Assembly (NCBI RefSeq): GCF_921293095.1
Contig: NC_060253.1
Coordinates: 97,915,073-97,979,072 of the forward strand
DNA length: 64,000 nucleotides
Origin: Ischnura elegans
Taxonomy: Eukaryota; Arthropoda; Insecta; Odonata; Coenagrionidae
Direction: 5' to 3'
In this document: positions 32,977 to 44,591 of the stretch, piece after piece
How positions within the stretch are numbered: the first letter of the stretch is position 1
Layout of the letters: the number at the start of each line of letters is the position of its first letter
Notes under the pieces: generated by a model
The model's database searches: none
Seen by the model: the letters and a program-made list of their open reading frames with translations, nothing else
Told to the model about the DNA's origin: nothing
Made by a program: the position numbers and the translations under genes

Positions 32977-32984
32977 TATAAATA
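32977..32984 (+). promoter_or_regulatory. TATA box of first cytokine-like gene
   Basis: TATAAATA lies 54 bases upstream of the start codon at 33031. A pol II start about 30 bases downstream would fall near 33007 and leave a 5' leader of only ~25 bases. It would also skip the out-of-frame ATG at 33003, which favours 33031 as the start codon. Confidence 0.5.
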
Positions 32985-33030: not shown

Positions 33031-33600
33031 ATGCAGCCGTCAGCCTACTGGCTTGCTTCCATCCACATGCTCATCCTGTTATCCTGGGCACATCCTAGAT
33101 CGCCAGAAGCAAGCTCTGTAGTCGTCGAACGCTACCCACGGCTTCTTAGGGCCTTCAGACCTCAGGATAGTTTTCTCACGGAGCAGCTGAGGAATCTGGA
33201 GTATAACCCAGGTTACTCCCAGAGGGCCGGTCTCGCCAAGAGGCGTAACGAGGAGCTGACCACTGTGTTTACGTGCCCTAGTCCAGTAGAGTATCCACTG
33301 AGTGTTCACCAGGGTAACATGTTTCACATTAGGGACATCCTGGTGCTGTGTCCTTTCAAAGTTCAGCGGGACTGCGACTCCGATAGGATACCCAAGGTCA
33401 TCAGGAACGTTCGCTGTCTGACAAAAGGTTGCAAGTGCCACTTAAAGGGAGACTACAACTGTGCTGAACTTTCCTCTATAGTAGAAGTGGAATATATAAA
33501 TTCTGGAAACAAAAGGCTAGAGAATGTTACGGTTTCGGACGCTTGCGTTTGTGTGGCTCAAAAGACAATGCACATATATAATAAGCCCCAAATTTATTGA
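33031..33600 (+). CDS. Secreted interleukin-17-like cystine-knot cytokine, paralogue 1
   Basis: This 189-residue intronless frame begins with a signal peptide: a hydrophobic stretch within residues 7-20, with likely cleavage near Ala20-Pro22. A propeptide-like segment follows and ends in AKRRN (residues 69-73), a dibasic processing site. The C-terminal domain has nine cysteines (82, 107, 115, 129, 134, 136, 144, 172, 174). Residues 107-134 (CPFKVQRDCDSDRIPKVI, then a C-x4-C pair) and the final AC-V-CV fit the IL-17 pattern: aromatic or cysteine lead, D-x-D-x-x-R-x-P-x-x-I, C-x4-C, closing C-x-C-V. N165 lies in an N-glycosylation sequon. IL-17 proteins are secreted dimeric immune cytokines. 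PTTH/trunk-type knots share a similar layout and are the main alternative. Its tandem paralogue is at 43887. Confidence 0.75.
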   Translation: MQPSAYWLASIHMLILLSWAHPRSPEASSVVVERYPRLLRAFRPQDSFLTEQLRNLEYNPGYSQRAGLAKRRNEELTTVFTCPSPVEYPLSVHQGNMFHIRDILVLCPFKVQRDCDSDRIPKVIRNVRCLTKGCKCHLKGDYNCAELSSIVEVEYINSGNKRLENVTVSDACVCVAQKTMHIYNKPQIY

Positions 33601-33920
33601 TTAATGTGAGTCCCAATGGAAATATTCCAACGCAGTGAAATGAAATGGGAGAAATGTAATATCGTGTCCTTCAATTTACCCATCTTCTCTGCGAGTTCGT
33701 TGAAAAAAATCTCTTTTATTTTGAATGTATGAATTCTATCTGTCAATATGTTGCATTGTTTTCAGCTTGGTTTAAGCCCTAATATTTAGAATTATAATCA
33801 AAAGGATAAAAGTGAAGCATGTGTTGAAAAAATATCTATGCCTTTGTAATTTGTAAACTTGGCATAATCTTTTTCATGTAATGGAATATCATTTTATGTG
33901 GACGAATTTTACGAGATATA

Positions 33921-33926
33921 AATAAA
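33921..33926 (+). terminator. Polyadenylation signal of first cytokine-like gene
   Basis: AATAAA occurs 321 bases after the stop codon, in the context ACGAGATATAAATAAATGG. It would give a 3' UTR of about 340 bases. A 46-base near-copy of this exact context occurs again at 36187-36232. Confidence 0.5.
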
Positions 33927-34363
33927 TGGAAAGATATTTATAATGTTTGTGGCTCTAATGAATTTATTGGCGCCTTATTCTTGTAGGCTTATGATTAATG
34001 CCTATCTTTTGCATTTACGAGGGCGGTTTTTTTCAATCCCCGCTTGCTCATCAAAAATACCATACAAGCGACAGGCGGGTACGGCGCAAGGTAGGACAAT
34101 TGTGCATTCCCCACACCTCTCGCTCAAGGCATTTCTAACCGTAATTTGTTAGTTTAAGGTTAGTAGAAATCTCATTAACTACACTGCCTCAAATGATTCT
34201 CCCGCCAAGTGTTCACTGCGGAGTGACAGCCAGAAAACTTGCCGAATGGCTTCAGCATTGACATGTCTTGTCCTTTATGCCGCTAAAAGAGCATTTTCTT
34301 TAATTCACCGTGGCTAGAGTGTGAAACATTACGTCCATTTCCATCCAAAAGTAAAGAAGAGAC

Positions 34364-34565
34364 ATGCTGACTTCTGGAAGTGTTCTGATCCGTGACAACG
34401 CCCGTCATCTTAGCGCTTATGCAGCCCAACTACTCCTTGAGCAATTTCAATGGGACATTTTCGATCACCCGCTGTGCAATTCCGACCTAGGGCCGAGGAC
34501 ATTCATCTTTACGCTGGATTGAAGATGTGGCTAGGAGGGAAGCAATTTCGGTTTGTGGTAGTTTC
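34364..34565 (+). pseudogene. Mariner transposase relic (different family)
   Basis: The plus-strand frame reads GSVLIRDNARHLSAYAAQ, then LLEQFQWDIFDHP. It next shows a decayed equivalent of the PPYSPDLAP-DYHLF block, and finally WLGGKQF-like sequence out of frame. DNARPH and EQFxWDxFDHPPYSPDLAP are hallmarks of mariner transposases carrying the second and third acidic catalytic residues. Stops and the lost proline-rich block show it is dead. Its motif wording differs from the mariner copies at 4118 and 38061. Confidence 0.7.
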
Positions 34566-35617
34566 GTGGGGCCAAGAAATAGTCAGGTATAGTGGAGCGA
34601 AGCAACACTCGAGAGAAACCCTTTTCTGAACCTTTTCTCGAGCTCCCAGAGATAAGCCGGGTCTTCGGGAGACGGTCGTCACAGCATGAGGTTACCCTTG
34701 CCGATATGACCAGTAGTAGTACATTTTTTACTTTACTAATGCCAATACTTAGAGGTAAACAAATACACTTCTCATACTCATTGCCGTTGAGCGATTAAAT
34801 GCGTCTTTTGATCGAGGTTCTACGATGAGAAATGAGGATTTTACGAAAAGTGATCAAATTTACGCCGATTGCCTCCACTGAATTGGCAACGCCTAAATTT
34901 TGTGAGTGGAGGGGGGAACGCAAAAAGCTCCTTTCTATCCCCCACTCGAATTTTTAGCTTGTCCACGTGTTTCAGGAATTCTGGTGACAGAGCAAAGGCA
35001 AAGGAAAGGCAAAATTCATTGGAAGTCATAGGCGGCAACAAGCAATGATGAAGGTAAAGTAAAGCTTGTCCACATGCACGATCAATTCGTCAAACGCGGA
35101 GGCCATTTTGTCGAAAGGGCACCACGAGTGTGCTCAATATTTATCAATGAAATAATTTTTAATCAATCAGTTCGTCTTCTGTTCATGACCCATCGGAGGT
35201 TGAAAAAAATGGCCATCGTATTTTGTTGAATTAATAGCTTATAGAAGTTGTCATATTGATTTTGAAATTGTTATTGGATCGATTGATTTTTTTCGTGCAA
35301 TAAGTGATTCTTTAGATATTTTCAAGGTGTATTTTTTTATATTTACGTTAATTGGTTGCTAATATAATTTCGCATCATTAGTAACTCCATTGATTTCATC
35401 TTCTGAATAATTAACTAGTCATGGTGAGCAGTCAGCATCCTGGTGCTGAAATTTTATCCTCTCAGATGATTCTGGGTAATGTTCATTAGCTAGATTATTT
35501 CTAGTGATGCAAGCTCTCAAATACAACCACGGAAGTGTGAAAATATCCGTTTCACTGAAGGTGAATATGCATTCATACTTTTTGAGAGATTTAGTGAGCA
35601 GGCAATTCTTAGAATCC

Positions 35618-35941
35618 ATCTCACATTTTCCAGAAATTGATTAGCCCTCTTTAAACTTAAAGAAATTTTTTTGCGGTATTTCCTTAGTCATTGCTTCGCG
35701 GAAATTCAGATTTACATAATACGCAACTCGACGACCTAAAACTTTGGAGAATGCGGAGACCCTTGATTCGAAACCGAGATCTCAAATTCTTCAGAAATTA
35801 ATCAGCCGTCTTTAAAATTAAAGAAAATGTTCTACGGTGTTTCCTTAGCCATTGCCTCGCGGTTAATTTAGATTTACATACCACAGAATTCAATGACCAA
35901 AAAGTTGGAGAATACGGAGAACCTTGGTTCGAAACTGAGGC
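35618..35941 (+). repeat. Two-copy tandem duplication, ~162 bp
   Basis: Copy 1 (35618-35778) and copy 2 (35779-35941) align end to end. They share CAGAAATTnATnAGCC, CTTTAAAnTTAAAGAAA, CGGTnTTTCCTTAG, CATTGCnTCGCGG and TTCGAAACnGAG. Differences are scattered at about one position in six, so it is an old duplication. No coding sense is seen. Confidence 0.75.
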
Positions 35942-36186
35942 AGGAAGTACGGTTTTTCTAATCGGAATTTTAATGCAATACCTATGATATCGTAAAGATG
36001 AATTGTTGGGTTGTCCATGCGTGTAGCAATCTTATTGTTAGTTTTAAATGCGGCGTCGAACACTGCCGTCCGGCTTCAAATATCCAGTTTTATCAGGTTA
36101 TAGTTTGATATAAGATACCAAAAATTTTTTCGGGGATTCCTTGTCTTTTTATCTCCATAACTCGCTGGGGGACACTGGAGGATTAA

Positions 36187-36232
36187 TTTTATGTGGACGA
36201 ATTTTACGAGATATAAATAAATGAAAAGATAT
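36187..36232 (+). repeat. Near-copy of cytokine gene 3' UTR end
   Basis: The 46 bases match the end of the 3' UTR of the gene at 33031 (about 33891-33936), with one mismatch seen. The match includes TTTTATGTGGACGAATTTTA and the AATAAA signal. A shared TTATAATGT follows in both after a short gap. No homologue of the coding region is visible upstream of this copy. Confidence 0.7.
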
Positions 36233-36239
36233 GTGCCCT

Positions 36240-38060
36240 TATAATGTGGAGGATCAGATTAATGTACGAGAATTTTTGTGAGAGGAATTTTCATAAAATT
36301 TCTTTCTTTTTTCTTCTCGTATGATATATTCTAAATCTAAGGTGAGGTAAAAGCTACATAGAAGTTAGAACCTAAATATTACCTATCCTATCCCTAAATA
36401 GAACCTATATAATATCCTATACCTAAATAGAACCTAAATAAATTAAAGACGGCGGATGTTTGGAGAAGAAAATGTTTTTCTCCAGAGTGAACAAAGAAAT
36501 AATTAACGGATATATTCATTTTTCCCATCCGTAAAAAATGTGTACCATCCATACCTTTCTTTCCAGGATGGTTAATTTTTTACCATCTGTCTCGTTCTCG
36601 ATTTAGATGAATATCATTTCGCATATCGGGACACATCCTTAGAGTTTAAAAGGGATTTACTTGTAGGTTTGGAAACTCTAAATTTATGGGATTAGGTGCA
36701 TGCAAATCGTGAAAGTATTCGATCGTGAAATTAGGTGTAAGAGTGCTCAAAAATCAATAATGGGGCTTTGCAAGGTAATATTAGGAAACGTCAAACCACT
36801 TCTATTTATCTTTATATAAGCATTCTGATTTTATTTTTTTCATTAAAGTACTTACCAAATTGGAGGAAAAATTTTAAATATACTACTTCAGCATGTCTGC
36901 GAAGAATTTAAATATATTAGTTCCCACTAATGATAAACAAAAGGGAAATCAGAAAACAACTACATAACAATTCCCATGCGATGAAGTACATTTGAAAAAC
37001 AAAGGGAAGTACTTCCACTAGTAAAATCGAAATTTATGGACCTATAAAGGGGTTTAGGTTTTGTGTAAAATGCGAGTTAAATCTAAAAACTAGTAATACA
37101 TTGTGGGAAACAGAATATTATGCCATCTTCATTACCCTTTATAGTTACCCATGCTTTGGCTTGCGGGGTAGTGTCTAAAGTTTCAACAAATGGAACATGA
37201 AAAATGAAAATGTGACTATTGAAATAAATTGTAAATGATAAGGATTGCCTAATTTAAGATTTTGCCTCATAAACACATTGAAAATGAAATGATTGAAGAA
37301 TAGAAAGACTAGGATTATGGATCTGGATTTGTTCTGCTGTGGTATATGTATGGTCATGTAAATAATTATAATACAGTTAGTGAAATTAGGATCAGTTTTA
37401 GCGCGAAAATTATTAGTCTGAACTTTCGGAAAAGAGTGCTAAGTAGAGAGTTGGAATAGGAAGGTCGAAATTTACATAAGATGAAGGCAACGACGAAAAT
37501 TTGAAACTTGGTAGTAAGAAATGGAAATACAGGTATATTAATTTAGTTAGTAGGTTTTAGACAATCTCTGGTAAAGCACAAGGTTCCATTTCGTGATGAA
37601 TAAAAAATTTGGGGTGGGAGAACTTAAAAAATTACTTTCCCGTCATCGTTTTCATTGCCGAATTCCTGTTTCTGCCTCACTTCCTTTAACAGCTCATATC
37701 TCGACTACTCATACTAATTGTTCAAGGAGTGACTTGTGCGTCAGCTTCTAATTGCATAAATAATTCGCGGCAAGAGAAAAGACTTCAACTGAAAATACTA
37801 CGTACTCCGCAGTATAGGATCGTGACCGACCGCTGCAATCATTTCATCGTATTGGATTGGCCTTATTCGAAGGGTTTTCGGCCACCAATTCTCCTTGGCT
37901 GACGGCAAATGATTCTTGCATAGTTCTCGTCTTCTTCCTCTCCCAGTTACCGGTGAAAGTGGAGGCGGCTATGATCCAAGAAGTGGAGATACCATGCAAC
38001 ACGGCTTTACTTTTAGTGCAAGAGAATCGCCTGTGAATGGCACTCATTTCTTTCGGTACA
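36240..38060. other. No gene recognised
   Basis: The section 36370-36440 has a short repeat of CCTAAATAGAACCTA units. Frames near 37175-37357 and 37844-38104 show no family motifs. Confidence 0.4.
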
Positions 38061-39389
38061 CGAGGTGTGTAAGGAAAATAAAGGGAATTTCAGTTTTTTT
38101 TTAATTAAAATTATTTATTCGTTTTCATTATTTTGTTTCCGCCTTCAAAATAGTTCCCATTAGTTATCATGTACCTGTTCCTGTGCTTCTACCAATCTTC
38201 GAAGCATTTCTCAAAATCAATCTTTGGAATAGCCTTTAGCTCTATGAGCGATTTCTTTCGATGTCACATATGCTTGTAAAACGACGCACAGTGGGCTGAA
38301 ATCGAAAAAAGCTGGACAAAACCTCGAAAATGGTTTTTTTGAGTATGGAAGTTGAAACTTCGCACAGTTGTTGACAACACATTAGTGCATTTTTTGACGC
38401 AAAATATTTTTCATCGGCTAATTTTTTATATAAAATACATAGCCTCAAAGTTGAACAAATTTGGCGCAAATTGCCCGCTTTGAATTTTTTTCGAAATTCA
38501 GCATGTTTAAACTAATGCCACACCTTTAGTGGTAATTCAATAGAAACAAAAATTTATAAATTTGTTAAACGGTTTGTTATCATCGATTACCATCAACTTT
38601 CACGACTTAGTTGTTGTATTTGTGACCAATACGATACAAAATGGCGGACCCTGTTTTTCGTCGAATTTTTGTGTTTATGTAGGATTTTAAAAAAAGGATC
38701 ACCGAGTTACCTCGAGATATTTACACCACATATACAACAAAGTATATAGATTATGATAATCGGAAGTACAGCTGCGACCACCTGCGACGCCGAAATTAAG
38801 ATCGATTTTTCGAACGTGCGGCACCGCCCGGAGCTGGCTGCTGGCCACGGGAATTGCCGTACTCGACGGATGTTGGATAGTGAATCATTATAAGCAAATT
38901 TATTGTATAAAAGCTATGATATATTATTACTACATTTATTTTCCTTTTGTTGTAACCCGATTTCTTTACTGTCTTGTAATATTTATCGTCGATGCAGTAC
39001 AAAATGGCGGACGCTAATTTCAGTAACATTTTTGCCCGTGTGTGGCTGTATAAAAAGGAGGACACCGAGTTGCTCTCAGATATTTACATCGTAATTGCAT
39101 CAAGCCTTTTAGAGTCTTCATCCACGGAAATAATCTGCGACCGTTGGCAACAAACTAAATAAAATCGATGTTTTTACCATGACGCGCAGTCCGCGGCTGC
39201 TCCTTGGGCTCATGGATTGTCGTGACGCAGCGTACATTATAAAGCGCTATGAATGCAAAGCCTTTGCTGAGAATGTATTTAATGTTTTTATTAACTCAAT
39301 AGGCTTTTAGGCTTCTTTCTCAGTCCTTCCGTTTTTGATAAAAGGTTATCAATGAATATTTAAATGAACCCTATGTACATGTAATAGCA

Positions 39390-40330
39390 TTACTCCGAGT
39401 CGGTTGATGAACTGTCGCTATCACTTCGAGGCTGCAGGATTTCTGGGTCATCGTCATTTAGTAACAGTAAATTCCTCACTTCTATCGGCATTCTTCGGGA
39501 TTTCTTTGTAATTAGGGGTGCGGCTTTGGATATTACTGAATCTGAGGTCAGGAGGATCCGACGAAATGAATCATCGTTGGTAGATATATTCTAGAGTGCT
39601 TCCTACTAAAGCTTTCTCGATATTTTCTGCTATCTTTATTGCGTGCTTCAATTGCTTCTTCACATAATTGCCCTAGAGGAAGAATCATCTCTGAAGCTAT
39701 ACCTGCTCCGTGTATTAGGACCTTATGAACAGTTTGGGGCACCATAGAACTCATATACAAATATTCCTCCGACCTAGGCTCTTGTTGCCAAACTTGCTTA
39801 TACTGCGAATGCCCATAACTTCCGTCGAAACAATATTTACAAATCAGAGTGCACTTCAATTCACTTCTGGCATCAGGAACAGTTGCCACGCGAGCTAGAA
39901 TCCGTGAGGCAGTGTGCGAGAGGAGAGTTTGTTGATTGACTTCGCACGATATTTCTATAATCTCTATGCCATCCGGGTACGCAGTATTTTTAGCAAACCT
40001 CACTATTTCATAGTTCAGGTATAATTTATGACCATGGCTTTCAGCTATTTTCCGAAGACACTTGTAGTGGTTTTTTGTTATGTGCATCGATATGATAACA
40101 GAAAGAGTCTCGTCTTCTGACACCATGGAGGAACCTGAGTTGGGTGTCTTCCATTTAGCTAGGACTCTCCTTGCTCTGCTTGGAATGATCGTTGTAATGT
40201 CCTTCACTAATTTGGAGGCCGCCTCATCTCCTTCCTCTCTTAATGTCATCGATGCTGCGAATGATAAAGTTGCCGCCGAGTGAGAAGATCTAAGACTTTC
40301 AATCTTCCTCCTCTTAGTTCTTTCGCTAAC
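39390..40330 (-). pseudogene. Transib transposase, internally deleted and frameshifted
   Basis: The main minus-strand frame (39548-40249, 233 codons) opens with a RAG1/Transib N-terminal segment; upstream in the same frame, SERTKRRKIESLRSSHSA extends it to about 40315. It continues through HYKCLRKIAESHGHKLYL and the block CFDGSYGHSQYKQVW, which carries the first catalytic aspartate. It then passes directly to TVHKVLIHGAG and QLCEEAIEARNKDSRKYRE, which carries the catalytic glutamate region. The middle of the core, with the second aspartate, is missing in frame. Near 39595 a one-base shift separates the C-terminus, which resumes as ILLTSDSVISKAAPL and ends at TAA 39390-39392. Full Transib transposases are about 600-700 residues, so this is a remnant. 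Confidence 0.85.
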
Positions 40331-40371
40331 TTAGTCATTTTTTTCCGGGCGTCCACCAGATTATAATGGGA

Positions 40372-40590
40372 TCAAAGTGAGTAAAAAATCGCCCTTAAAT
40401 CCATTGATTTAATGCAACAACTCAGGTCACTTATTAATCGCATATACTTACCCGAAGAATTAGAAGCTCTGGTCAATTCTAGAACGTTTTCTGGTACATA
40501 TATAGGTGCTTTCATCCTCTTATTATTTATCCTCAAAAATCTTTCATTGTTTCTACTGCAGGCTTCCCGTTTCCTTTGGTAGCGAATCAA
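40372..40590 (-). pseudogene. Possible upstream exon of the Transib transposase
   Basis: A minus-strand frame starts at 40590 and reaches ASNSSG, followed by a consensus donor GG|GTAAGTATATG (exon edge at 40452). The next coding block begins around 40315. The protein is rich in Lys, Arg and Asn and has no motif I can name. The placement just upstream of the transposase and the good donor suggest a 5' exon, but no acceptor is clear. Confidence 0.35.
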
Positions 40591-42810
40591 AAAATATCGT
40601 GTAAGAAAGTCACTAAGGCCCTTCGTAATTACCTTGCGCGTGAAATTTTTTCGTCAGATATTAGGTACATTGAAAATTCATATCTCTATGCAAAGGATTT
40701 ACATCCGGATTTGACAACCTTTTTATGAAGCAATAGACGAATTACCTCGATACCAGACATTTTTTAAATGCTCCAAATTTGTTGTTCAATTCAACACTGG
40801 TTCTATTTAAGGCGAACGAGTTTCCAATAACAAGTAACATACATGAAAATTAAAGAAAGGGTCAATTCTAGAGGCGTTAATGGTAAATAAAAAAAGGGAA
40901 ATTGCTTATAGCACGAGGCAAATATAAAGAGCTACAAATGAAAATCACTTACCAGTTTGGATGATAGATGCCTGGTGAATGAGTGATTGACACCGCCAAT
41001 GCAGTTAAAGCAGAAAACCGATGAGATTCCGCGGAGTTCTCAATATCTAAAGCGCGTGTATCCAAGTGCATCCAAAATCACCACAGCAAAACTAACCTCT
41101 TTCACTGTATATTCAAAACTAAATTCTTTCTGGAAACGGAATTACCGAAAAAAGGTAAAAGGGACCGCACACGAGCAACGTGGGGTCATAAAAAGACCCT
41201 TTTCGCGACTACCGCATGGGGTGGACGGGCAAATACCAACCAGCTGCAGGCTGGTCGCCTGGTTGTAAAATCTATTTCGTCTTTGAGGTTAGAAGCAGGC
41301 TAACAGAGCCGTTTAACCCATCCAAGGGGTAAAATGCACGAGCGGAATTGTCAGAGTTTTAAGTCAGCTAGTTTGCATTCGGGAATTTGCTAAATAGTCA
41401 CTAGTCAATAAAAATGGATAGAGGAATGAATCCATTTACCTAAAGTGACAACAAACCAACTTGAAATGAAATGGTAATAATTATGTTGGAATAAAACATA
41501 CCCACATCAAAGAATTCATAGCGCTTTATGATGTACGCTGCGTCACGACAATACATGAGCCCAAGGAGCAGCCGCGGACTGCGCGTCACGGTAAAAACAT
41601 CGATTTTATTTAGTTTGTTGCCAACGGTCGCAGATTATTTCCGTGGATGAAGACTCTAAAAGGCTTGATGCAATTACGATGTAAATATCTGAGAGCAACT
41701 CGGTGTCCTCCTTTTTATACAGCCACACACGGGCAAAAATGTTACTGAAATTAGCGTCCGCCATTTTGTACTGCATCGACGATAAATATTACAAGACAGT
41801 AAAGAAATCGGGTTACAACAAAAGGAAAATAAATGTAGTAATAATATATCATAGCTTTTATACAATAAATTTGCTTATAATGATTCACTATCCAACATCC
41901 GTCGAGTACGGCAATTCCCGTGGCCAGCAGCCAGCTCCGGGCGGTGCCGCACGTTCGAAAAATCGATCTTAATTTCGGCGTCGCAGGTGGTCGCAGCTGT
42001 ACTTCCGATTATCATAATCTATATACTTTGTTGTATATGTGGTGTAAATATCTCGAGGTAACTCGGTGATCCTTTTTTTAAAATCCTACATAAACACAAA
42101 AATTCGACGAAAAACAGGGTCCGCCATTTTGTATCGTATTGGTCACAAATACAACAACTAAGTCGTGAAAGTTGATGGTAATCGATGATAACAAACCGTT
42201 TAACAAATTTATAAATTTTTGTTTCTATTGAATTACCACTAAAGGTGTGGCATTAGTTTAAACATGCTGAATTTCGAAAAAAATTCAAAGCGGGCAATTT
42301 GCGCCAAATTTGTTCAACTTTGAGGCTATGTATTTTATATAAAAAATTAGCCGATGAAAAATATTTTGCGTCAAAAAATGCACTAATGTGTTGTCAACAA
42401 CTGTGCGAAGTTTCAACTTCCATACTCAAAAAAACCATTTTCGAGGTTTTGTCCAGCTTTTTTCGATTTCAGCCCACTGTGCGACGGTCCATTAAGGTTC
42501 TCTTTATATTTGGCAAGAGGAAATGTCACTCAAAGCCATGTCTGGCGAATATGAAGGCTAGGGCATCGTTACACCATTGTTTTTGGCCAAACACTGAAGC
42601 AATGAAGTGAGAGCATAAAAACGCCGAGCTAATAAAAACACATCTAAACTTAGCGGCTACAACAGACATAGTAAACAATGAATACAGCTGAAAATAAAAC
42701 ATATTTCAGGGACACGTAAACCGACATAATAAAAAAAATTGGCTCTTGGAATCTCCAAACTCGCGAGAATTTTTTAAATTTAGTTGCCGTTATTTTCTGA
42801 ACTCACCTCG

Positions 42811-43400
42811 TAATTTCCTGTGATGTCAAGCAAATGCTTTCACCGGCTATGCGGTAAAATACATATTAGAAACGGTTTAAATCTTCGGATTATAACGCTA
42901 TCGAAAACATAATTCTGCGACGCCCTAATCTGACACGCTTGTATTTCTCGAAATCAGTAATAATAATTTTTCTGCAAAAGATTCGTGAGTGAAACTTCGT
43001 ACAGGTATTGTTAAATGTGTATGTAAAAATTGTTTATTAGCTTTGATAGCAATAAAGTGAATTATGGCTTACCAAAGTCGGTGTATTCCTTGAAAACCCT
43101 CAAAAAAGATTTAAATATTCGTTAATACGGAGATAAATACTACGAAAATGCCATATCAAAATTCAAGTTGAGTCTTAAACAATGAAATTAGCAGGAAAAA
43201 TTTGTTTTAATTAGTGCTCTCTGTCAGTTTCAGTTCTATTTAAATCCGTATTGTGGATCACGTCTACGTATAGTTTATACGCCATTCGTAAAAATTATAA
43301 ATACCTCTATACGAACCCCTTCTCTTGACTAAAAACTGTTCCTCAAGAGGGAAACTTTGTTTCGAAAATAAAAATGACCATGTCGATTAAAAAGTTATGA
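42811..43400. other. No gene recognised
   Basis: AT-rich sequence between the mariner end and the GC-richer promoter region of the second cytokine-like gene. No motif or boundary is seen. Confidence 0.4.
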
Positions 43401-43683
43401 CACCCGTATCACGGTGGGTGGAGTGGGAGAGGTGTTAAACTGGCCTAATTACAGTTTGAAAGGGATGGGGAAGCCCTGAGAAGGCAGGTAAGTCGGAGAA
43501 ATTTCCTTTACCGCGACGTGCCGTGCCCCTCGGCGGACGCCCACGACTTCTCCAGCTCTTCCGTAGCGCGTCTGGTAGTTCCCCTCACCTGGGGGAAGAG
43601 GATGAACACAAAAGCGTTTTATGATCTCCGCGCGGCCTTCCAATCAGAGCCCACCGCTGAGGTGTCCGCGGCTATGGAAGGGA

Positions 43684-43693
43684 GGGAATCCCT
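43684..43693 (+). promoter_or_regulatory. Possible NF-kB-type site
   Basis: GGGAATCCCT fits the near-palindromic Rel/NF-kB type of site and lies about 100 bases upstream of the TATA box of the second cytokine-like gene. A ten-base match can arise by chance. No comparable site was seen upstream of the first gene. Confidence 0.25.
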
Positions 43694-43790
43694 GCCCATC
43701 GCATCAGCTTCCCAAACGAGAGGAAAAGTGATAATATATTTGGGATGTGTGTATCGGAAGAAATTGCGATCGGCACGTGATACGGACGCA

Positions 43791-43798
43791 TATAAGAG
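43791..43798 (+). promoter_or_regulatory. TATA box of second cytokine-like gene
   Basis: TATAAGAG lies 96 bases upstream of the first in-frame methionine (43887) and 132 bases upstream of the second (43923). A start about 30 bases downstream, near 43822, would give a leader of 65 or 101 bases. Confidence 0.4.
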
Positions 43799-43886
43799 TG
43801 AGGGACACCTCAGGCTTTAACTGCAGACGGCACAGTCGAATCTAAACCCAGGAGCTCCGCAGAGCAACCGGAATTCATCCTCTCTG

Positions 43887-44591
43887 ATGACCATCACTGT
43901 ATCGCGTGGTGTTTTCGCTGAGATGTCGAACCAACGAAGCTGTTGCCTCGTGTCTCTCCCGGTCGCTGTCCTGATCCTGAGCGAGTTGCTGAGGTTGTCC
44001 ATGGTGGACTCTGCCGGTCACCCCGGACGTCTTCAGCACCGGAGGATTGGCGGCTCCGAGGAACAGTCATCGGAAGGCTTTGACTGGGATGAGGCGGAAC
44101 TAAGCGAGATTGATCTCAACCGGGGTCGCCACCCTGGAGTGCTGCATCAACGTAGGGTTCCGGAAGTGGATAGAGCCAACCACGTCAGTCCCGGAGGTTC
44201 AAGTCCCCGAGAGTTTCCCTTGAAGCCGTTGCCGGCCAAGCGGCGAAATTATTTCATGGAGCAGGGACATATGGGCTCCTGTCTGGCAGAGTACAAGTAT
44301 GGGATCAAGGACAAAATCATTCCAATATGCTCCCAACGAGTCGACGAAGAAGACGTGGACCTGGAAAGGATTCCTTCGGTCATCAGACATGTCCGATGCA
44401 ACCATGGAGGCTGCGCTTGCACTAGACTGGGCGATTATCGGTGCTTGGAATTGACGACTGAGATGGAGGTGAACTACAAGCCGGCCTCTGGGAGAATCTT
44501 CATTCCTTACAACGTGACGGTTTCGTATGCGTGCGCGTGTGTGATGATCGAATCTATGACGATTTACAGTAAACTTCCTTTAACTGTATGA
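43887..44591 (+). CDS. Secreted interleukin-17-like cystine-knot cytokine, paralogue 2
   Basis: This intronless frame has 234 codons from 43887. The methionine at 43923 (residue 13) sits closer to the hydrophobic core (residues 19-38) and makes a more normal signal peptide, so it may be the true start. An acidic propeptide (residues about 45-117) ends in AKRRN (117-121), the same processing site as in the first paralogue. The C-terminal domain has cysteines 132, 148, 171, 176, 178, 186, 216 and 218, matching eight of paralogue 1. DVDLERIPSVIRHVRC, then C-x4-C and a closing ACACV, closely follow the IL-17 signature. The sequon at N209 aligns with N165 of paralogue 1. Expected role: extracellular signalling, probably immune. 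PTTH/trunk-like factors are the alternative. Codon use is GC-richer than its surroundings. Confidence 0.75.
   Translation: MTITVSRGVFAEMSNQRSCCLVSLPVAVLILSELLRLSMVDSAGHPGRLQHRRIGGSEEQSSEGFDWDEAELSEIDLNRGRHPGVLHQRRVPEVDRANHVSPGGSSPREFPLKPLPAKRRNYFMEQGHMGSCLAEYKYGIKDKIIPICSQRVDEEDVDLERIPSVIRHVRCNHGGCACTRLGDYRCLELTTEMEVNYKPASGRIFIPYNVTVSYACACVMIESMTIYSKLPLTV

What the first reader, a model, noticed from the sequence alone, without database searches (positions are those of the whole stretch)
33031..44591. Tandem pair of interleukin-17-like secreted proteins in an arthropod genome
Two intronless genes on the same strand, 10.3 kb apart, encode signal peptide, propeptide and a domain with eight matching cysteines. 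The D-x-D-x-x-R-I-P-x-V-I, C-x4-C and closing C-x-C-V pattern is that of IL-17. From memory, IL-17 genes are absent from Drosophila and patchy in arthropods, so a local pair would show lineage-specific retention and expansion of this cytokine.
Basis: partly seen in the sequence, partly recalled or inferred. Interest (0 to 1): 0.85.

Follow-up and report, generated by a model that had tools for sequence, protein, structure and literature searches.

The report
Damselfly interleukin-17-like signal genes
This stretch of damselfly DNA carries two neighbouring genes for interleukin-17-like signal proteins, part of a larger family in the same genome together with a matching receptor, although a published survey found no interleukin-17 in the insects it examined.

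Summary
Two intronless genes, window 33031-33600 and 43887-44591 (both +), encode apparently secreted precursors with a KRR site and a C-terminal IL-17 domain. Pfam lists IL17 (PF06083) and nothing else (32.6 and 24.8 bits; cut-off 24). A profile of eight family members lists only IL-17A/F/25 sequences in the PDB (25 of 25). Low-confidence models resemble IL-17 best, with PTTH close behind. The genome matches Ischnura elegans, a damselfly, by total length, scaffold count and four chromosome lengths. I count eight IL-17-like loci on four chromosomes, and one SEFIR receptor gene on the X. A 2015 survey found no IL-17 in three insects; a 2021 survey found one Drosophila sequence. In decapods the IL-17 homologue is crustacean female sex hormone, with SEFIR receptor candidates. 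The window genes share its precursor layout but not its cysteine spacing; a chromosome-3 gene nearly has that spacing. So: IL-17 family, near certain; cytokine or hormone role unresolved. New members of a known kind.

The parts
32977..32982 (+). TATA box-like TATAAA, 54 bases before the ATG of gene 1
   Evidence: read in sequence; a consensus match only
33031..33600 (+). gene 1, intronless ORF, 189 aa, IL-17-like precursor
   Evidence: Pfam IL17 E 1.1e-7, 32.6 bits (cut-off 24)
33238..33246 (+). KRR (residues 70-72), putative prohormone cleavage site of gene 1
   Evidence: sequence; cleavage inferred
33346..33555 (+). IL-17 domain of gene 1 (residues 106-175)
   Evidence: IL-17-like model
33921..33926 (+). 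AATAAA, possible polyadenylation signal of gene 1
   Evidence: read in sequence
43791..43796 (+). TATAAG, TATA-like motif upstream of gene 2
   Evidence: read in sequence; not found by the scan, whose pattern was TATA[AT]A
43887..44591 (+). gene 2, intronless ORF, 234 aa, IL-17-like precursor (alternative start 43923)
   Evidence: Pfam IL17 E 3e-5, 24.8 bits (cut-off 24)
44238..44246 (+). KRR (residues 118-120), putative prohormone cleavage site of gene 2; further RR at residues 52 and 89
   Evidence: sequence; cleavage inferred
44349..44543 (+). IL-17 domain of gene 2 (residues 155-219)
   Evidence: IL-17-like model

Best explanation
The two genes are paralogous members of the IL-17 family in a genome that matches the damselfly Ischnura elegans, chromosome 8. 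Each makes a precursor with a hydrophobic start that is probably secreted and cut at KRR to release a mature part of 117 or 114 aa with the C-x4-C ... C-x-C core. By analogy with IL-17 and with crustacean female sex hormone, the mature proteins most likely dimerise and act on a single-pass SEFIR receptor, for which the genome has one clear gene on the X chromosome. Shown here: the ORFs, family membership by sequence, paralogy, models that resemble IL-17 best, and a receptor gene with transmembrane and SEFIR exons. Inferred: secretion, cleavage, dimerisation, ligand-receptor pairing, and any immune or endocrine role.
For: Pfam IL17 is the only family listed for either protein. The family profile lists only IL-17A, F and 25 in the PDB, 25 of 25 sequences, best E 4.5e-7. 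The 50 Foldseek rows listed, of 389 at E up to 10, for the gene 1 model are IL-17 family entries. Six further loci in the genome share the domain. Receptor: SEFIR 42 bits, E 1.5e-10 after joining two exons across a GT-AG intron, with a transmembrane exon upstream. The precursor layout (signal peptide, propeptide, dibasic site, IL-17 domain, single coding exon) matches published CFSH (PMC6056722, PMC4888303; passages).
Confidence: 0.9

Rival explanations
1. The pair acts mainly as neuroendocrine hormones of the CFSH type, not as immune cytokines, and controls reproduction or sexual traits through the SEFIR receptor.
For: In decapods the IL-17-domain proteins are reported to be CFSHs, with SEFIR receptor candidates from pull-down and RNA interference (PMC10418988, PMC10604874; passages). 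Signal peptide, precursor peptide, dibasic site, single coding exon and paralogues agree.
Against: Cysteine spacing differs: CFSH-1 has C-x-C-x4-C-x6-C, the pair C-x4-C-x-C-x7-C. The only N-glycosylation motif lies near the C-terminus, while type I CFSH has it near the N-terminus. The chromosome-3 locus is the better CFSH candidate.
Confidence: 0.3
2. Immune cytokine of gut or haemocytes, as IL-17 is in the sea urchin larva and in mammals.
For: Family membership; tandem paralogues, as in expanded invertebrate IL-17 families (PMC8353272, passages); a SEFIR receptor. The sea urchin gut role is from the start of an abstract in a listing (PMC5457136).
Against: No expression data. The arthropod relatives with tested function that I read about are hormones.
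Confidence: 0.4
3. PTTH, trunk or Spaetzle-like cystine-knot proteins.
Against: No such family was listed by Pfam to E 10 and no such chain by the profile search to E 10, although the PDB holds PTTH.
Confidence: 0.03
4. Non-functional copies left by duplication or transposition.
For: A transposon lies between the two genes; another family locus, C12:46275243, looks truncated at its C-terminus against C2:23646096.
Against: Both ORFs are uninterrupted at 48% core identity with family residues kept, which is hard to explain without selection.
Confidence: 0.04

Closest known systems
IL-17 family (PF06083), vertebrate IL-17A/F/25
   Same: Domain over the Pfam cut-off, C-x4-C ... C-x-C core, RIPxVI stretch, best fold match
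   Different: Further cysteines after the C-x4-C (C-x-C-x7-C), a dibasic propeptide, no introns; 20-27% identity in the structural alignments listed
Crustacean female sex hormone (CFSH)
   Same: IL-17 domain, signal peptide, precursor peptide, dibasic site, single coding exon in Eriocheir CFSH 1 and 2b, paralogues, SEFIR receptor candidate (passages)
   Different: Cysteine spacing, shorter mature part (117 and 114 against 167-168 aa), position of the N-glycosylation motif
Daphnia pulex IL-17 (125692; PMC4517768 Table 1)
   Same: 233 aa, IL-17 domain 156-225, no intron, almost the layout of gene 2 (234 aa, 155-219)
   Different: The table lists no signal peptide for it; its sequence was not compared here
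PTTH (Torso ligand)
   Same: Fold score close to that of IL-17 for the predicted models
   Different: Not listed by the sequence profile

Membership tests
IL-17 family | PF06083 over its curated cut-off | tested here: met
   32.6 and 24.8 bits, cut-off 24; gene 2 only just
IL-17 family | C-x4-C and C-x-C core cysteines | tested here: met
IL-17 family | IL-17 fold | tested here: inconclusive
IL-17 family | SEFIR receptor in the same genome | tested here: met
   C19:81677712-81678653, SEFIR 42 bits after joining exons; nothing at E up to 0.001 before joining
IL-17 family | secreted dimer that signals through a SEFIR receptor | not testable with these tools
   needs biochemistry
CFSH | signal peptide, precursor-related peptide, dibasic site, IL-17 domain | tested here: met
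   against PMC6056722; signal peptide by hydropathy only
CFSH | CFSH-1 cysteine spacing 33-24/25-1-4-6-28-1-17 | tested here: not met
   window pair ends 4-1-7-27-1-15 and 4-1-7-29-1-16 (CFSH)
CFSH | clusters with CFSH in a tree | not tested
   no CFSH sequences were at hand
PTTH/trunk/Spaetzle | match by sequence profile | tested here: not met
   none listed to E 10; whether Pfam holds a model for each of the three was not checked
PTTH/trunk/Spaetzle | fold | tested here: inconclusive

The most novel reading that the evidence does not exclude
Damselflies keep both a CFSH-type hormone gene (chromosome 3) and separate IL-17 branches (the window pair and the chromosome-2 cluster), with one main SEFIR receptor on the X chromosome. 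The split into hormone-type and cytokine-type IL-17 would then be older than the insect-crustacean split, and an IL-17-type protein hormone could regulate reproduction in insects.
Probability: 0.22. Interest if true: 0.75.

Novelty: new member of a known kind. Interest (0 to 1): 0.5.

Why it matters
IL-17 was reported absent from Insecta in a survey that names three species (PMC4517768), and a 2021 survey found one Drosophila sequence and none in Apis (PMC8353272). A ligand family of eight loci plus a receptor in an early-branching winged insect would suggest that flies and bees lost most of an older system. [quoted passage not shown] Damselflies can be tested by expression studies and RNA interference, so the question of immune versus endocrine roles of arthropod IL-17 becomes testable.

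Tried and rejected
Cystine-knot rivals: no PTTH, trunk or Spaetzle family or chain was listed by sequence; the closeness of the PTTH fold is reported. Weak genome matches dropped from the count of eight loci, six in all: C1:111224489 and C9:7607725, both with stops; C4:2284267, C9:54281551 and C4:25888479, all with stops; C5:97146658, whose frame lacks the IL-17 pattern. C2:23462481, which I kept, also shows one stop; it lies upstream of that gene's ATG. A possible second SEFIR fragment, C7:9258301 (E 0.94), was read but never scored by Pfam, since the calls that held it failed. NCBIfam gave nothing. Rfam and tRNA scans of the window gave nothing. The insect odorant receptor search (PF02949), meant to place the taxon, did not complete; the match of assembly statistics replaced it. 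IL-17 or CFSH of Odonata or other early insects in print: paper searches listed none that I recognised from titles and abstract openings. Except for search 90 (odonat, IL-17, immune genes; 0 papers), these listings show 15-25 of 41 to 23,169 papers, so they are a partial look; subscription journals and preprints are not in that library.

Full report
What is there. Two ORFs lie on the + strand at 33031-33600 (189 aa) and 43887-44591 (234 aa). Neither is interrupted by an intron in the coding part. A TATA-like motif lies upstream of each (32977 and 43791). Each protein starts with a hydrophobic stretch, runs through a propeptide to KRR (residues 70-72 and 118-120), and ends with a cysteine-rich domain that holds the protein's only N-glycosylation motif, NVT. 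The pair is 40% identical over 124 aa. In 20 block shuffles of the window the mean number of ORFs of 180 aa or more was 0.05 against 3 observed.

Which organism. The assembly has 1,722,721,009 bases in 110 contigs. C2, C3, C8 and C19 are 147,998,192, 139,038,753, 118,119,564 and 123,641,648 bases long. The passages that I read of the Ischnura elegans genome note give 1,723 Mb, 110 scaffolds, and 148.00, 139.04, 118.12 and 123.64 Mb for chromosomes 2, 3, 8 and X (PMC9975421). By this match the window is chromosome 8, 97,915,073-97,979,072, of the blue-tailed damselfly; the record itself was not named to me.

How many. Genome searches with gene 2, PF06083, a chromosome-2 member and the chromosome-3 member give eight loci after dropping six weak matches: the window pair; C2:23449728, 23458221, 23462481 and 23646096; C12:46275243; C3:65690582. 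At E up to 0.001 the PF06083 search gave gene 1 alone. Pfam puts four of the eight over the cut-off (gene 1, gene 2, C3, C2:23646096); the other four score 21.9, 16.8, 15.4 and 11.9 bits. In a tree of the eight the window pair groups together at 93/91, short of the tool's star; no inner branch is starred and C3 has a very long branch. Six-frame search misses split exons, so eight is a lower bound.

The receptor. SEFIR (PF08357) gave nothing at E up to 0.001 and one match at E up to 10, on the X at C19:81677712 (E 0.022, 24.9 bits, cut-off 23). The next exon, across a GT-AG intron, continues the domain; joined, SEFIR scores 42 bits, E 1.5e-10. Against PDB sequences the joined part listed three: an unrelated thiolase (E 0.056), IL-17RB/RA (0.065) and IL-17RA (0.94). 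An exon upstream encodes a transmembrane stretch, and two exons before it look like ectodomain; one has a sub-threshold match to the ILCR1 Ig-like domain (E 0.024), the other none. A search with the second SEFIR exon found itself and a weak piece on C7 (E 0.94), which was not tested further. CIKS/Act1 was not found, which shows little.

CFSH. In the passages that I read, decapod CFSH has a signal peptide, a precursor-related peptide, a KR site and an eight-cysteine mature part with an IL-17 domain (PMC6056722; PMC9662296), single coding exons for Eriocheir CFSH 1 and 2b and several paralogues (PMC4888303), and SEFIR-domain receptor candidates from pull-down and RNA interference (PMC10418988; PMC10604874). 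The window pair has that layout. Its cysteine spacing differs: 4-1-7-27-1 and 4-1-7-29-1 where CFSH-1 has 1-4-6-28-1. The C3 gene ends 1-4-7-28-1-18. Just before the stretch used there is one more cysteine, so that it has nine where CFSH-1 has eight; 33 residues separate this cysteine from the third, which is the first gap of CFSH-1. A candidate first exon with a hydrophobic start and RERRKR lies 3.6 kb upstream, but no GTRAG splice donor was found in it. No CFSH sequence was at hand to align, so this is a lead.

Function. Most likely the mature proteins are released at KRR, dimerise and act on the X-linked SEFIR receptor; every step after the gene and family calls is inferred. I give an immune role 0.4 and an endocrine role 0.3.

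Known or new. IL-17 was reported absent from aphid, honeybee and fruit fly (PMC4517768, passages); a later survey found one Drosophila sequence and none in Apis (PMC8353272, passages). Daphnia pulex has an intronless 233-aa IL-17 with the domain at 156-225, nearly the layout of gene 2. I saw no report for Odonata in the partial listings of the open library; the public gene annotation of this species could not be consulted and may already name these genes. So: new members of a known kind, of moderate interest.

Noticed in passing
window 38287-42481: A DNA transposon of 4,195 bases between the two genes, with inverted ends identical over 892 bases, ends beginning CACAGTG and a CGACG copy on each side; by recall these are marks of Transib elements, relatives of RAG. 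It holds a 233-aa ORF at 39548-40249 (-) without a Pfam match over a cut-off. The identical arms suggest a recent insertion.
   Followed up: partly
G000:C3:65690582-65690941 (-), L026, L042: An IL-17-domain exon whose cysteine spacing is nearly that of crustacean female sex hormone type 1, with a candidate first exon 3.6 kb upstream: a possible insect CFSH gene.
   Followed up: partly
G000:C2:23449728-23646332: A cluster of four short IL-17-like genes without the long propeptide; three of the four score below the Pfam cut-off.
   Followed up: partly
G000:C12:46275243-46275461 (-), L029: A copy of C2:23646096, 79% identical over 632 bases, shorter at the C-terminus and lacking one cysteine of the middle C-x-C; possibly a decaying duplicate.
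   Followed up: partly
G000:C7:9258301-9258453, L054: A weak match (E 0.94) to part of the second SEFIR exon, perhaps a second receptor or a remnant.
   Followed up: no
G000:C3:35.06-35.13, 66.23 and 122.96-123.16 Mb: Clusters of Hemocyanin_M exons (31 matches), some with stops in the match; by recall the HHWHWHLVYP stretch is that of prophenoloxidase.
   Followed up: no
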